Positions 3,934 to 59,531 of a stretch of DNA of 64,000 nt are shown piece after piece. The stretch lies in the NCBI GenBank assembly GCA_946560065.1, contig CAMNUE010000003.1, forward strand, positions 62,001-126,000, given 5' to 3'. Below the pieces are notes generated by a model that was given only the letters and a program-made list of their open reading frames with translations, was not told the origin of the DNA and did no database searches. The position numbers and the translations under genes were made by a program. Within the stretch, counting starts at the first letter, position 1; each line of letters starts with the position of its first letter. Source of the DNA: an uncultured bacterium (lineage in GTDB: Bacteria; Bacillota_I; Bacilli_A; RF39; UBA660).

Positions 3934-6900
3934 CTAATGGTCTATTTCTATAACATATGGTGCTTCAATACTACCATCTCCTGAATTGTATGTAACCCCA
4001 TTTTTCAATGATATAGATGGTCGTACTCCCATTAAGCCTCCGATATAATCTCTACCATAGTAACTATCATCACCATCTTGAGCCAAGTAATTTCCATATG
4101 CATTACCATAACGATAATAATAAGGTGAATTAAGCCAACTAACACTTTTTGACATTATTGGTGATTCTTTCGTTGAATATTGAAATGCCATTTTTCTTTC
4201 TTGTTCGGTAATTAATCCAACAGGGTATGTCAATGCTCCATTACCGTTCATTTTATCAACTGTAAATCTATCAATTTCATTCAGACAGGTTAAATTTTCT
4301 TTGTTGTCTGTGTATGCAGAGAATTTTATTTCAGATTTATATCCTCCTCCATCTTTATTCAGTCCATTTTCATTCATATTACTTATACTTCTTTCATTAC
4401 ACCAAACTGTATCCTCAAGATATTTTGTGTATTGTCTCATATATTTTGAATACCATAAATCTATTACGCTTTTAATTGCAGAGTTGTATTTATTCACATC
4501 ATTGGCATATAACATTTCATTGATGATAGTTTCGATATCTTTACCAGAATTCAGTTCGAAATAGTATGGAGATATATTGCTTATGGGAACGTTATTCATA
4601 TTCACTCCTTGTATATTGTATATGTAGGATAGTGTTTTACATTTACCTTCAGAATTCCAGCAAGTATAGTGTGTATTTTCTAATTTTGCATCTGAATTTT
4701 CCGCTCCCCATTCTAAAAAGTTTTGAACTTTTCCATTTAAGGTATACTCTCCTGTTGAGTTGTCGTAAATAAATGAGCTTCCATATTTATAGTTATTAGA
4801 AATATCTAAGCGGACAAAAAGATTGGGAGCGGTCAATGTAACGTAATATACCTTATCACAAGTAAGATTTGAACAATAATATTTGTTCTCATAATTTTTG
4901 TGTTCATTAAACCATTCTATTTTTTTTACTTTTTTAGTTGTTTTTGGATCTAACACTTGTTTTCCATTCCCATCATCAACTAAAGAATCTGCAAAATAAT
5001 AAGATTCCTCAGTAGAATGTATATTTTCCCCGTCTCTAAAAGCTACTGTATACATAGTGCGACTTCTTTCATTTATACCTTCTATGTACTTTACGTAATT
5101 TTTGCTGAATACTTCATCTGAACTAGAAAAGGTATATTTTCCAGCTATATTTAAATAATCTGATGAAGATGTTATTTTAAATGGATTTACTAATGTATAT
5201 TCCATAGTAGATGGATTCCACTCAATATCATCAGCATAATAATAACTATTTGATATTGATTCGTCATTAAGAGTCAGTTCAGTGTTATACATTTGCTTTG
5301 TTTTAGATATATATCTTGCATTGTACATATATCCTACATCGGCTATTGATGTGTCATTGTTATTAAATTTACTTTTTCCAATTTCAGAATATTTTGTGTT
5401 TAAAGATATTGGTATGACTTCTGCAGATGTGTTGGATTTATATGATTCCACATAGTACAATGTACTACAAGTTCCTGTTGTATTTGCACAGGTATATCTT
5501 CCTATTAAATTCTGGTAAGTTGTGGAATTCCAAATTACTTGTTCTAAATCTCCAGACAAAGTAAATGTTTTAGATACTTCATCGTATGTATAATCCGTTC
5601 CATAGTTATAGTTAGCTGAAAGTGTTTGAGTTGTTCTTGAATCATACCCAACATGAGTTTCTCTATTTGTTCCACATTTGCCTTCAGAATCTGGTTCTCC
5701 ATTATAAATCATTTTTACTCCACCTGTATCTGTTGTTCTATACATACTCCAACAAAATCCACCAAAGATAACATTATTATTTTGAGTTTTTCCCTTGTAA
5801 TAGTAAATATCTTGATTTTCTTTGAACGTACTTGTATCTCCAGTATATTTTTGGGCACCTTTATTATTTTCATAATCTTGTTTAATTTGTTTGTATAAAG
5901 TAATTTTTTCCTTGATAGTACCTTCCATTGATTTACTAATACCTAATTTACTCCAATTTGCTTTTAAAGTAACATCTTCCTCTGGCATTATGAAGTAATC
6001 ATCATTAACTTTTTTAGCATTCTTGTTAATTATCTTCCATCCTTTGAATTGATAACCTTCGCATTTTGGAACACTATTGCTTATTTCAACTGTATCGAAT
6101 ACTGTGTGTTGTTTTTCTGAAGGGACACTTTCTACTTTGCAACCAGATGGCTTATTCCCGTCATATACTACTTTATAATTATTAGAAAGTATTGGTGTTT
6201 TGGAACTAGTAACGTTTTCTTCATCTTCGTTTAGTGTACTTTTAACATCTTCCTTTTCGTTTGTTGAATAGATTCCACCTTTTCCTAATAATTCTTCCTT
6301 TAATTTGGCTTTGATTGTCACTTTTGCTTTTAGACCAGATTTTAAATCGTCCATTTTCCAAGTAAATTTTTGATTATCCTTATCGAAAGATATGTTCCCT
6401 TGACTTACTTTTATGTCATTTTCACTCTCTACATAAAAATAGTTTGTATCGATGTAATCTGTTATCTCAAAATTTTCATAAGTAACTGGAGTAATAGATG
6501 CTTCAAATAAAACATTGTTTAAAGTCTCCATATCCGCTATATATTGATTATCACTAACTTTTTTTATTGGATTCAAAATTGTACTTCCCATTTCATATTG
6601 AACTCCATTAATTGTGATAAATGGATATTGACTCTTCAAATAACTGTATTGTCCTTCTTCATTTGGAATTTCTTCATTAGGATAACCATCTGTTAAAAAT
6701 AAAACTATACATTCTTTATCTTTTTCTTTTACATAATCCTTTAAAACTGTATCGACATTTACTAATGCTTGGTAATAGTTCGTACAGCCTGTAGTAGTCA
6801 AAGAATTTATTTTATTTATTAATTCTTCTTTATTATTAGTTAGTGGAGAAACAATCTGAGAATTAGTCTCAAAAGTAATAAGTCCCGCTTTATTCTTATC

Positions 6901-7293
6901 ATTTGCAAGTAAACTCTCAATTAGCTGAATACTATCTGCTTTTACCTTATCCAACTTTTCCCCATCCATCGAACCAGATACATCTAGTACAAATAAAATA
7001 TCAGTGTACTTAGTATTACTCTTCATGATAGAATCAACATCAAAAGTAATTTCTGCAGTCCCCTTTTCTTTCCACTTTGCACTCTTCTTTATCTTCCAAG
7101 CACCTGGTTCCTTTTTTTCATAATCTAATTTCTCAGAAAAGATTTCCACACTCTTCACTGGGTGTAGTTGGGCAAATATTCTTGGTGCTGTAACAATTCC
7201 TAAGACAAAAATTAATGCTAGATAAAAATATGGAATTTTATTTTTACTTAGAACTGTTTTTAATTTTGGAATATTCACCTTTATTTTATTCAT
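3934..7293 (-). CDS. Large surface protein: signal anchor, VWA domain, InlB-like module, C-terminal repeats
   Basis: Predicted cell-surface protein of 1119 aa. Residues about 20-40 form an uncleaved signal anchor. A von Willebrand factor A domain follows, with the MIDAS motif D104-V-S-G-S108, which binds divalent metal and typically a protein ligand. Near residues 370-450 is an InlB B-repeat/Flg_new-like module (YKVVYDGNKPSG...FKGWKI...ANW). The C-terminal ~650 residues contain at least four degenerate units with a Tyr/Cys pattern (Y.C....C..LYYV), then a tail like a DUF6273/fibrobacter-type domain ending GVRPSISLKNGV. No LPxTG is present. Its first ~450 residues are paralogous to the broken gene at 23-25.4 kb. 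An adhesive or sensory role is inferred from architecture. Start ATG has AGGAG upstream and a strong promoter at 7330-7358. Confidence 0.8.
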   Translation of the reverse strand: MNKIKVNIPKLKTVLSKNKIPYFYLALIFVLGIVTAPRIFAQLHPVKSVEIFSEKLDYEKKEPGAWKIKKSAKWKEKGTAEITFDVDSIMKSNTKYTDILFVLDVSGSMDGEKLDKVKADSIQLIESLLANDKNKAGLITFETNSQIVSPLTNNKEELINKINSLTTTGCTNYYQALVNVDTVLKDYVKEKDKECIVLFLTDGYPNEEIPNEEGQYSYLKSQYPFITINGVQYEMGSTILNPIKKVSDNQYIADMETLNNVLFEASITPVTYENFEITDYIDTNYFYVESENDIKVSQGNISFDKDNQKFTWKMDDLKSGLKAKVTIKAKLKEELLGKGGIYSTNEKEDVKSTLNEDEENVTSSKTPILSNNYKVVYDGNKPSGCKVESVPSEKQHTVFDTVEISNSVPKCEGYQFKGWKIINKNAKKVNDDYFIMPEEDVTLKANWSKLGISKSMEGTIKEKITLYKQIKQDYENNKGAQKYTGDTSTFKENQDIYYYKGKTQNNNVIFGGFCWSMYRTTDTGGVKMIYNGEPDSEGKCGTNRETHVGYDSRTTQTLSANYNYGTDYTYDEVSKTFTLSGDLEQVIWNSTTYQNLIGRYTCANTTGTCSTLYYVESYKSNTSAEVIPISLNTKYSEIGKSKFNNNDTSIADVGYMYNARYISKTKQMYNTELTLNDESISNSYYYADDIEWNPSTMEYTLVNPFKITSSSDYLNIAGKYTFSSSDEVFSKNYVKYIEGINERSRTMYTVAFRDGENIHSTEESYYFADSLVDDGNGKQVLDPKTTKKVKKIEWFNEHKNYENKYYCSNLTCDKVYYVTLTAPNLFVRLDISNNYKYGSSFIYDNSTGEYTLNGKVQNFLEWGAENSDAKLENTHYTCWNSEGKCKTLSYIYNIQGVNMNNVPISNISPYYFELNSGKDIETIINEMLYANDVNKYNSAIKSVIDLWYSKYMRQYTKYLEDTVWCNERSISNMNENGLNKDGGGYKSEIKFSAYTDNKENLTCLNEIDRFTVDKMNGNGALTYPVGLITEQERKMAFQYSTKESPIMSKSVSWLNSPYYYRYGNAYGNYLAQDGDDSYYGRDYIGGLMGVRPSISLKNGVTYNSGDGSIEAPYVIEIDH

Positions 7294-23033: not shown

Positions 23034-25447
23034 TTAACTTGTTAAGGATACAGCTTGACCTTTAACAACGTTTTTTCTTTCTTGTCTTGTAGCTATAATT
23101 TTGTCTGCTAATTCTTCACTGCCTTCCAAATAATTAACAATAATCTTACCATCTCCACTAGTTGATATGTAACCGAAAGCATTAGAATAAGAACTTATTT
23201 TGTTTCCTAGAGTTAAAGATATGTTTATATTTCCTACGTATGCAAACATTGTATCCATATTAACTACATTGTAAAGATTCATATTGGTAACAATTAAATT
23301 ATTTAGACCTGTGCACCACCAAAACATGTAAGATACATCCTCAACATTTGAAAAATCGAAGTTACTGATGTTAAGGGCTAAAAGTTTACTAGAGCCTGCA
23401 AACATATAACTCATCTTTGTAACTTTTGATGTGTCAAAGTTGCTTAAGTCAAGTTCAGCTAAATCTTCATTCCAATAAAACATTGAAGTCATGTCAGTTA
23501 CTTTGCTAGTATTAAAACTACTTACATTAAGTGATTTTAAACTAGTTGCATAGAACATTCCTGCCATTGTCTCCACATTAGATGTATCAAAACTACTTAG
23601 ATCTAAATTTGTAAAGCTACTCCAATAAAACATTCCATACATATTAGTTACTTTTGATGTATTAAAATTACTAAAATCTAGATTTTCAAGTCCACAATTA
23701 TAAAACATAAGAGTCATATTTTCGACGTTAGATGTATCTAGAAGATTGATATTTATTATTGATTTCAGATTTGTGAATTCATAAAATAAATACGAGCTAT
23801 CTGGGTTGGCAAGAATTGTTTCATCACTTTGAATATAGGCTGTGTATTTTGTATTATCATCTTCTCTTGGAACAATATATCCCATTATTCTTTTATCTTT
23901 ATTTTCAGATAGATCCAAGACATCGATAGCTTCTGGGATTTGCTTTATACTATCTTGAAAAACTATTTCTACGAGGCTATCAGCATATTTATGTAAGCCT
24001 GCTTCCATTTCATCTGTTTCTTCATTGTATATTACGCGTTCTAAGAAATTTGGACTGTTTTTGGAAACAGTTCCTTCAAGTTTTTTCTCAACTGAAGTAC
24101 GTCCCCATACTGCTCTAATTACAACATCTTTTTCTGGCATAACGAAATAATCCATATTAAGCTTACTAACATTTTCTGTAACTATCTCCCAGCCTTTAAA
24201 TTTATATCCTGAACATCTTAATTTCTGTTCACTTATTTCGACTGAATCAAAGACAGAATAATATCTTTCATTCGGAATGTCTCCCTCTACTTTGCATCCA
24301 AATGGGGCATTATCATCGTATACAACTTTATAATTATCTGCCAAAATAGGTGTGCTTTCACTTGTAACTTTTTCCTCATTTTCATCTAATTTACTTTTTA
24401 TTTCTTCTTTTTTATTAGTAGGAAAAATTCCGCCTTGATTAACAAATTCTTCTTTTAATTTAACTTTTATTGTCATTTTGGCTTTTCTTCCAGAATTTAA
24501 TTCATCAATTATCCATGTTATTTTTTGGCTTTCTTTGTCCAGTGTCGCTTTTCCTCTATTTGTTTTGATATTACTTTCATCTTCTATGTAAAAATAATCC
24601 GTGTCAATGTAATCTGTTATCTCAAAATTCTCATAAGTAGTTGATGTTATTGAAGCTTCAAATAAGACATTATTTAAGTTTTGCATATCAGCAATAAATT
24701 GGTAATCACTAACTTTTTTTATCGGTTCTAGAATTGTTTTACCCATCTCATATTGAATTCCATTTATTGTGATAAATGGGTATTGGCTTTTTAAATACTC
24801 ATATTGCGCAACCTCATTAGGAATATCTTCATTTGGATATCCATCTGTTAAGAACAATACAATACATTCCCTATCTTTTTCTTTTACATACTCTTTCAAA
24901 ATAGAGTCTACATTAATTAGTGCTTGATAATAATTAGTACAACCAGTAGTACTTAGTCTATTCACCTTTCCAATCAAATCATCTTTGTTATTGGTAAAGT
25001 TAGAAATTATTTGTGAGTTAGTTTCGAAGGTGATTAGACCGGCTTTATTTTTACTGTTAGATAGTAAACTATTGATTAATTCGATTGTATCAAGCTTAAC
25101 TTTATCCAATTTTTCTTCATTCATTGATCCAGATGTATCTAAGACAAAAAGTATATCGGTAAACTTATCATTGTTTTTAATTATTGTGTCAACATCAAAG
25201 GTAATTTCAGCAACACCTTTGATTATCCATTTAGCACTCTTATCAATTTTCCATGATCCTGGCTCTTTTTTTTCGTAGTTAGCCTTTTCCGAAAATATTT
25301 CTATTTTTTTACAACTTGTGGTTGGGCAAGTATTTTGGGAACTGTAACTATTCCTATAAACAATAATAAAATAAAACTTAATGCGATGATTTTATTTTTT
25401 CTTGTTAATGAATTCAAATAGTAAAACTTGTTTTTTTGCTTATTCAT
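23034..25447 (-). pseudogene. Frameshifted or phase-variable VWA/InlB-like/DUF285 (BspA-type) surface protein
   Basis: Paralog of the VWA surface gene at 3.9-7.3 kb. A true start at 25447 (after AAGGTGGGATAGT) encodes a signal anchor, but the frame ends in TAG after about 48 codons at the poly-A tract near 25303-25312. Adding a single A (8 instead of 7) restores the frame through KKIEIFSEKANYEKKEPG into a VWA domain with the MIDAS motif DTSGS, then an InlB-like module, then seven ~23-residue repeats of LDLSSFDTSNVxxMxxMF type (DUF285/BspA leucine-rich). The track ORF (23034-25124) starts within the VWA motif and would lack both anchor and the first MIDAS residues. Remaining reading frame is intact, which argues for recent, reversible or sequencing-derived change. 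Product would be a surface adhesin-like protein. Confidence 0.8.
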
Positions 25448-25468
25448 ACTATCCCACCTTACAGTAAA

Positions 25469-25477
25469 ATTATAGCA
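25469..25477 (-). promoter_or_regulatory. Extended -10 promoter of the frameshifted VWA gene
   Basis: TGCTATAAT on the minus strand, 22 bp before the ATG at 25447. Its presence suggests that the gene is still transcribed. Confidence 0.65.
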
Positions 25478-25504
25478 AACAATTAATTACTAAACAACTG
25501 TCTT

Positions 25505-58474: not shown

Positions 58475-58487
58475 TGATGTGACACCT
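58475..58487 (+). repeat. Left terminal inverted repeat of the insertion sequence
   Basis: TGATGTGACACCT, perfect inverted match to 59551-59563. Confidence 0.88.
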
Positions 58488-58501
58488 TTTATATACAAAA
58501 A

Positions 58502-58562
58502 AAGCAATAAGTCGTATAAAATATTAATTAAACCAAAAACTATACGAAAGGACTTATTGCTT
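58502..58562 (+). promoter_or_regulatory. Hairpin covering the transposase ribosome binding site
   Basis: AAGCAATAAGTC (58502-58513) pairs with GACTTATTGCTT (58551-58562), and the inner GTATA pairs with TATAC, leaving GAAAG bulged. The ribosome binding site AAAGGA lies in the bulge and stem, and the arm ends on the base before the ATG. RNA entering from outside would be folded and poorly translated, a known way for IS elements to limit transposase made by read-through. Confidence 0.75.
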
Positions 58563-59531
58563 ATGACAAGTATACCACACACTCAACGTTATTTTCCACA
58601 TGATTTGAATACAAAATTTTATTCAGTTAATCTATACAGGAAAGGTTATTCTATTTCTTTTGTTTGTAGAAGATATAAAATATCTAAGTCATCTCTCATG
58701 AGATGGAATAGGAGATTTGATGGTTCTAAAGAATCCTTAATTGATAAATCTCATAGACCTCTATCTAAACATCCTAATGCTCACTCTGATATTGAAATTA
58801 AATGGATTAAAAATCTGATTAGGCGTAACCCTCACATCTCTATGTCAGAACTATATGGGAAATTAAGAACTGAATATGGCTACTCTAGACATGCAACTTC
58901 ATTATTTAGAGTTCTTAGAAAAATGGGATTCTATATTGATAAAGAGAAACATACCAAATATATTCCTAAACCTTACGATACTCCTAACGAAATCGGAATA
59001 AAATGGCAACTCGACGTTAAATATGTTCCTACAGAATGTTATTCTGGTACTGATAAAGAAAAATTTTATCAATATACAATAATAGATGAAGCTTCCCGTG
59101 AAAGATTTATTTATCCATACAAAGAACAATCATCTTATTCAACTGTTGACTTTATTAAAAGAGCTATTGTTTATTTTGGTTATAAACCAAAAATTATACA
59201 AACTGATAATGGATTTGAATTTACTCACCATGCAAATACAAAAAGAGTTCATCCATTCGATGTATTATGCAATGAACTTAAAATTGAACACAAACTAATT
59301 TGGCCTCGTACTCCTAGACATAATGGTAAAGTGGAAAGAAGTCATAGAAATGATCAAAACAGATTCTACAACTATTTAAAATTCTATTCTTATGAAGATT
59401 TAAAAATTCAAATGAAGGCATATTTAAAACGTTCCAATAATATTCCAATGCAAGTTTTAGGCTGGATTTCTCCCATTGAAAAAAGAAACAAAATAAAGGA
59501 AGCTTATGCAAAAGCATCGCTTCCGAATTAA
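58563..59531 (+). CDS. DDE transposase (integrase core, IS481/IS1202-like)
   Basis: A 322-aa transposase. The N-terminal helix-turn-helix (SISFVCRRYKISKSSLMRWNRRF) binds the ends; the rve-type core has D in WQLDVKYV, D in IQTDNGFEF and E in HNGKVERSHR (DDE). The track start at 58479 lies within the terminal repeat region; ATG 58563 is chosen since AAAGGA precedes it and it begins the family-like MTSIPHTQRY. Intact, so potentially active. It is the only plus-strand gene between 31.4 and 62.1 kb, and the cluster around it reads on the minus strand. Confidence 0.92.
   Translation: MTSIPHTQRYFPHDLNTKFYSVNLYRKGYSISFVCRRYKISKSSLMRWNRRFDGSKESLIDKSHRPLSKHPNAHSDIEIKWIKNLIRRNPHISMSELYGKLRTEYGYSRHATSLFRVLRKMGFYIDKEKHTKYIPKPYDTPNEIGIKWQLDVKYVPTECYSGTDKEKFYQYTIIDEASRERFIYPYKEQSSYSTVDFIKRAIVYFGYKPKIIQTDNGFEFTHHANTKRVHPFDVLCNELKIEHKLIWPRTPRHNGKVERSHRNDQNRFYNYLKFYSYEDLKIQMKAYLKRSNNIPMQVLGWISPIEKRNKIKEAYAKASLPN

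What the first reader, a model, noticed from the sequence alone, without database searches (positions are those of the whole stretch)
25298..25320. Single-base frameshift in a poly-A run separates anchor from VWA domain
The minus-strand sequence GTT-GTA followed by seven A then TAG closes the frame after ~48 codons. Eight A would restore VVKKIEIFSEK, matching the paralog's VKSVEIFSEK. The rest of the 2.3-kb frame, promoter and ribosome binding site are intact. A homopolymer of seven or eight A at this site can vary by slipped-strand mispairing or transcriptional slippage, giving on/off surface display. A sequencing error is the dull alternative.
Basis: partly seen in the sequence, partly recalled or inferred. 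Interest (0 to 1): 0.7.

Follow-up and report, generated by a model that had tools for sequence, protein, structure and literature searches.

The report
Frameshift silencing one surface-protein gene copy
One of ten related surface-protein genes in an uncultured gut-type bacterium is cut off after its secretion signal by a one-base frameshift, and the evidence points to an ordinary recent gene knock-out (or a sequencing slip) rather than a built-in on/off switch.

Summary
The frame break is real in the given sequence. On the minus strand a 48-codon ORF (25447-25301) encodes a signal-peptide-like segment and ends at TAG just after a run of seven A (25310-25304). The next frame stays open for 2.27 kb and encodes a VWA / InlB-type repeat / PARCEL (DUF285, BspA-like) protein.

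The gene is one of ten paralogs. Eight are intact. Another (contig C6) is broken twice, at sites without long homopolymers. All 83 distinct homologs from other genomes with enough upstream sequence read through this junction, so the site is not a conserved programmed shift.

The A7 run is not special. Across 671 genes of this genome A7 runs occur as often as synonymous shuffles predict (560 seen, 581 expected). A8 is halved and A9 nearly absent, so the slippage-prone threshold lies above seven. An in-frame A8 run lies 30 nt downstream in the same gene. The missing base cannot be assigned to the run.

Best reading: a recent null allele of a redundant surface-protein gene. Sequencing error is the main rival. 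Phase variation as in Mycoplasma hominis vaa or Listeria inlA is possible but unsupported; no reads or conspecific genome were available. Low interest.

The parts
25469..25497 (-). Promoter-like site: TTGTTT, 17 nt, TGC-TATAAT (extended -10)
   Evidence: read from the sequence; not listed by the scan because of its weak -35 box
25454..25460 (-). Shine-Dalgarno-like AAGGTGG, 6 nt before the ATG
   Evidence: sequence
25301..25447 (-). Upstream ORF, 48 aa: lysine-rich start, hydrophobic stretch, ILA-Q: signal-peptide-like segment of the surface protein
   Evidence: SPase-like pattern in 78 of 83 family members
25304..25310 (-). Run of seven A; codons GTA AAA AAA, an in-phase A_AAA_AAA heptamer
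   Evidence: 331 in-phase A_AAA_AAA heptamers in 671 genes of the genome
25301..25303 (-). TAG that closes the upstream frame
23034..25310 (-). Downstream open frame (758 aa from 25310), mature part of the surface protein
   Evidence: 73% identity to the paralog at 3934-7293
24765..25157 (-). VWA domain with intact DxSxS metal-site motif (DTSGS)
   Evidence: Pfam VWA_2 1.9e-16, VWA 1.1e-13
24102..24212 (-). Divergent InlB B-repeat (Flg_new_2)
   Evidence: Pfam 1.1e-6
23217..23777 (-). PARCEL / DUF285 (BspA-like) repeats
   Evidence: Pfam DUF285 5.6e-37; NCBIfam TIGR02167 1e-35
25266..25273 (-). In-frame run of eight A in the same gene, longer than the run at the break and not shifted
3934..7293 (-). 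Intact paralog, 1119 aa, reads from signal peptide into VWA in one frame

Best explanation
The gene is a recently silenced copy in a ten-member family of secreted VWA/BspA-like surface proteins. One base was lost at or right next to a run of A just after the signal-peptide codons, most likely by replication slippage. Translation now stops after 48 codons and no mature protein is made. The cell keeps eight intact paralogs, so the loss is tolerated. Shown: the break, the family, the intact paralogs, the lack of decay downstream, the absence of the break in relatives. Inferred: that the loss is a real mutation, that it arose by slippage, and that the allele is simply null.
For: Break and open downstream frame. 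Ten family members in the genome, eight intact. All 83 external members with enough upstream sequence are intact at the junction. The downstream part keeps 106 of 111 residues that are invariant in seven intact paralogs, and pairwise synonymous differences far exceed nonsynonymous ones, so the break is recent. Frame breaks in the genome are concentrated here: 2 of 10 family genes against 2 of about 661 other genes in 864 kb (Fisher p = 0.0012). One of those other two is also a surface gene, on contig C9. The other broken family gene (C6) has two breaks at sites without long homopolymers, as expected for decay.
Against: No reads and no conspecific genome could be examined, so a real mutation is not proven. 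A singleton frameshift with intact homologs is, by the expectation in PMC3711429, more often a sequencing error than a true indel. The focal copy has only one lesion.
Confidence: 0.48

Rival explanations
1. Sequencing, consensus or assembly error: the real gene is open, and one base was dropped at a homopolymer, or a consensus was drawn over mixed strains.
For: Homopolymer site; singleton break; the genome is a draft in 25 contigs with estimated contamination 5.99%. Two identical 1.1-kb transposase copies lie inside contigs, which suggests long reads or another assembly that is not plain short-read. PMC3711429 expects singleton breaks with intact homologs to be mostly errors.
Against: 679 runs of seven or more A sit in 671 open genes of the sampled part of the genome, so the per-run error rate is low. 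Breaks cluster in surface or multi-copy genes, which random error does not predict; strain mixing could.
Confidence: 0.28
2. Phase-variable contingency locus: slippage in the A run switches the protein on and off within the population, as in Mycoplasma hominis vaa or Listeria inlA.
For: Surface protein in a paralog family; A run 137 nt into the gene; precedents of nearly the same form: vaa is on with eight A and off with seven or nine (PMC524362); inlA varies between A7 and A6 (PMC2831843). A8 runs are avoided twofold in this genome's genes, so runs of eight are probably less stable.
Against: No run of this kind is kept at this site in relatives or paralogs. A7 runs are not avoided: 560 seen, 581 expected. 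A longer in-frame A8 run 30 nt downstream is unshifted. Loss from an A8 run is not the only single-base change that fits.
Confidence: 0.17
3. Recoding: -1 ribosomal frameshifting at A_AAA_AAA before the TAG, or transcriptional slippage, makes some full-length protein from the sequence as it stands.
For: The heptamer is in the right phase and the shift is in the right direction. The genome holds a prophage tail-gene pair with an A_AAA_AAC site in the same arrangement. An IS cluster with A_AAA_AAA is a proven case of -1 frameshifting (PMC4066793).
Against: Not conserved: none of 83 relatives and none of the intact paralogs has the break. 331 in-phase A_AAA_AAA heptamers sit in ordinary genes. 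No Shine-Dalgarno-like stimulator upstream by eye, and downstream folding is weak (z = -1.4). Transcriptional slippage becomes evident at about nine A in many genomes (PMC1088944), and A7 is not avoided here.
Confidence: 0.07

Closest known systems
Mycoplasma hominis vaa (variable adherence-associated adhesin)
   Same: Surface protein of a low-GC bacterium; [quoted passage not shown] a seven-A state puts the gene out of frame (PMC524362)
   Different: In vaa length variation was observed in isolates at 1e-3 to 1e-4. Here there is one sequence, no observed variation, and no conserved run. Protein architecture differs.
Listeria monocytogenes inlA 5' poly(A) tract
   Same: Poly-A tract close to the start of a surface-protein gene; a one-base change truncates it (PMC2831843)
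   Different: In inlA both alleles were found in many isolates and the rate was measured.
BspA-like / PARCEL (DUF285, TIGR02167) surface proteins
   Same: The C-terminal part matches both models strongly
   Different: Here the repeats follow a signal peptide, VWA domain and InlB-type repeat; the window paralog has no DUF285 match.
Singleton frameshifted genes of the GeneTack survey (PMC3711429)
   Same: Single break, homologs intact, no conserved shift site
   Different: The break lies in a multi-gene surface family that has a second broken member.

Membership tests
Secreted VWA / BspA-like (PARCEL) surface protein family | VWA domain with DxSxS motif | tested here: met
   Pfam VWA_2 1.9e-16; DTSGS present
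Secreted VWA / BspA-like (PARCEL) surface protein family | PARCEL / DUF285 repeats | tested here: met
   DUF285 5.6e-37, TIGR02167 1e-35
Secreted VWA / BspA-like (PARCEL) surface protein family | Signal peptide in frame with the VWA domain | tested here: not met
   Signal-peptide-like ORF ends at TAG; VWA is in the other frame. Met in eight paralogs and 83 external members
Phase-variable homopolymer contingency locus | More than one run length in a population or among close isolates | not testable with these tools
   No reads; one genome per species; no conspecific found
Phase-variable homopolymer contingency locus | Run longer or more conserved at the site than expected | tested here: not met
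   A7 at expected frequency; A runs of 2-8 without conservation at the site in relatives
Programmed -1 frameshift gene | Slippery heptamer in the right phase | tested here: met
   GTA AAA AAA
Programmed -1 frameshift gene | Break and slippery site conserved in homologs | tested here: not met
   0 of 83 external members and none of the intact paralogs broken at the site
Programmed -1 frameshift gene | Stimulatory structure or Shine-Dalgarno-like element | tested here: inconclusive
   Downstream fold z = -1.4, 22 of 200 shuffles as good; no SD-like element upstream by eye
Pseudogene / null allele | Non-conserved break in a gene with intact homologs | tested here: met
Pseudogene / null allele | Further lesions or relaxed constraint downstream | tested here: not met
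   No further stop; 106 of 111 invariant residues kept. A recent break would look the same.

The most novel reading that the evidence does not exclude
A reversible A-run switch of the vaa/inlA type controls one member of a ten-gene VWA/PARCEL surface family in an uncultured gut-type Bacilli lineage where, as far as the papers found here show, no such switch is described.
Probability: 0.15. Interest if true: 0.4.

Novelty: new member of a known kind. Interest (0 to 1): 0.15.

Why it matters
It is a caution: in AT-rich genomes a seven-A run next to a frame break is expected background, not evidence of a switch. If the switch reading were true it would extend homopolymer phase variation to surface proteins of uncultured gut Bacilli. 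The more solid by-product is that frame breaks in this genome are concentrated in large surface-protein and multi-copy genes.

Tried and rejected
Orthologs of this gene at the same place in congeners: none; the strong congener DNA matches are to the neighbouring exonuclease gene, and the family search (291 genomes) found only distant relatives. Internal start at 25124 as a way to make a cytoplasmic VWA protein: rejected, since it would start inside the metal-site motif. A candidate break on C5 (8913) was judged to be two separate genes. The candidate on C1 (84496) is a prophage tail-gene pair.

Full report
Observation. The minus-strand sequence at 25315-25301 is GTT GTA AAA AAA TAG. The upstream ORF runs from ATG at 25447 to this TAG, 48 codons. 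The run is seven A in total, 25310-25304. Read from 25310 the other frame is open for 758 codons to 23034. Its protein has a VWA domain, a divergent InlB repeat and PARCEL/DUF285 repeats.

Family. The window lies in contig C3 of a 1.98-Mb draft genome in 25 contigs. The genome has ten members of this family. Eight read from the N-terminal hydrophobic segment into the VWA domain in one frame. The focal gene does not, and the copy on contig C6 is broken twice: about 20 codons after the junction, in a sequence without a long homopolymer, and near its 3' end in a short TA repeat. Together with members found by genus and family searches, 83 distinct external members have at least 40 codons upstream of the junction, and all 83 read through it with a hydrophobic segment. 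None is conspecific.

The N-terminal segment. In most members it has a lysine-rich start, a hydrophobic core and A or S at the expected cleavage position (IFA-Q, AFA-A, SFA-L; 78 of 83 fit a loose SPase-like pattern). It is better described as a signal peptide than as an anchor; this is inference from sequence pattern, not from a dedicated predictor.

Where the base was lost. The frame changes between the GTA codon and the GAA codon that follows the run (alignments). That interval is the run and its next two bases. Intact relatives differ in the bases they have there, and two congeners have an intact gene with seven A at the same place. So the claim that the ancestral run had eight A is possible but not established.

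Is the run special? In 671 genes (737 kb of coding DNA) of this genome, compared with shuffles that keep each protein and its codon counts, A7 occurs 560 times against 581 expected, A8 118 against 216, A9 once against 72, A10 to A12 never against 57. Long runs are clearly avoided, with the threshold at eight to nine. This agrees with the survey of 108 genomes that found nine to be the usual length (PMC1088944). A7 itself is tolerated. In-phase A_AAA_AAA heptamers occur 331 times. The focal gene also has an in-frame A8 run 30 nt downstream. A runs of seven or more are more common in the first tenth (17.8%) and last tenth of genes; the 5' excess agrees with PMC2831843 but is genome-wide.

Age of the break. 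The downstream part keeps 106 of 111 residues that are invariant among seven intact paralogs, similar to the intact copies. Pairwise synonymous divergence is near saturation while the nonsynonymous proportion is 0.15-0.23. Constraint held until recently, or still holds.

Census of frame breaks. A frame-aware hexamer model was run on 464 kb and then on 864 kb. It finds 65 of 80 simulated one-base losses. Clear breaks: the focal gene; the C6 paralog (two); a DUF3137 gene at C2:49631 at an A6G run, with an intact tandem paralog and intact homologs in congeners; and a surface gene with Listeria-Bacteroides repeats at C9:29860 in no long homopolymer. A prophage tail-gene pair with an A_AAA_AAC site at C1:84.1-84.7 kb was also found, probably a true programmed frameshift. 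Two of ten family genes are broken against two of about 661 others (Fisher p = 0.0012). The test was chosen after seeing the data and the numbers are small.

Weighing. Recoding is disfavoured by lack of conservation, lack of a clear stimulator (z = -1.4) and the abundance of the same heptamer in ordinary genes. A switch of the vaa or inlA type (PMC524362; PMC2831843) has strong precedent in form, but its defining observation, more than one run length, cannot be tested here, and what could be tested (conservation, unusual length) is negative. A sequencing error is a serious rival; PMC3711429 expects singletons with intact homologs to be mostly errors, but 679 long A runs in open genes and the clustering of breaks in surface genes speak for a real mutation. 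The most likely reading is a recent null allele in a redundant surface-protein family.

Noticed in passing
L011 (G000:C6:37500-43800), breaks near C6:42600 and C6:40126: A second family member is broken twice, at a non-homopolymer site about 20 codons after the junction and in a short TA repeat near the 3' end.
   Followed up: yes
L162 (G000:C2:40001-60000), break near C2:49631: A DUF3137 gene is broken at an A6G run followed by TAG, in the same arrangement as the focal gene (A_AAA_AAG in phase); its tandem paralog and congener homologs are intact.
   Followed up: partly
L215 (G000:C9:20001-40000), break near C9:29860: A surface-protein gene with Listeria-Bacteroides repeats and a C-terminal hydrophobic segment looks frame-broken in no long homopolymer.
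   Followed up: partly
L203 (G000:C1:80001-100000), about C1:84138-84704: Phage tail-gene pair (phrog_2115 followed by phrog_10988) overlapping in the -1 frame at A_AAA_AAC: probably a programmed frameshift of a tail assembly chaperone in a prophage.
   Followed up: partly
G000, 671 genes in 864 kb: A9 and longer runs are almost absent from genes (1 against about 129 expected for nine to twelve), A8 is halved, and T runs of 6-9 are also depleted.
   Followed up: yes
window 58479-59531 and G000:C9:14638-15738: Identical 1.1-kb transposase copies lie inside two contigs, which suggests the assembly was not made from plain short reads alone.
   Followed up: partly
L108-L147: The same VWA family occurs in many copies in MAGs labelled Candidatus Saccharibacteria, often with a much longer N-terminal part (over 650 codons); either a wide transfer or mislabelled MAGs.
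   Followed up: no
window 23387-23738: DNA matches to the PARCEL repeat region recur at many places in congener genomes, in line with repeated spread of these repeats.
   Followed up: no
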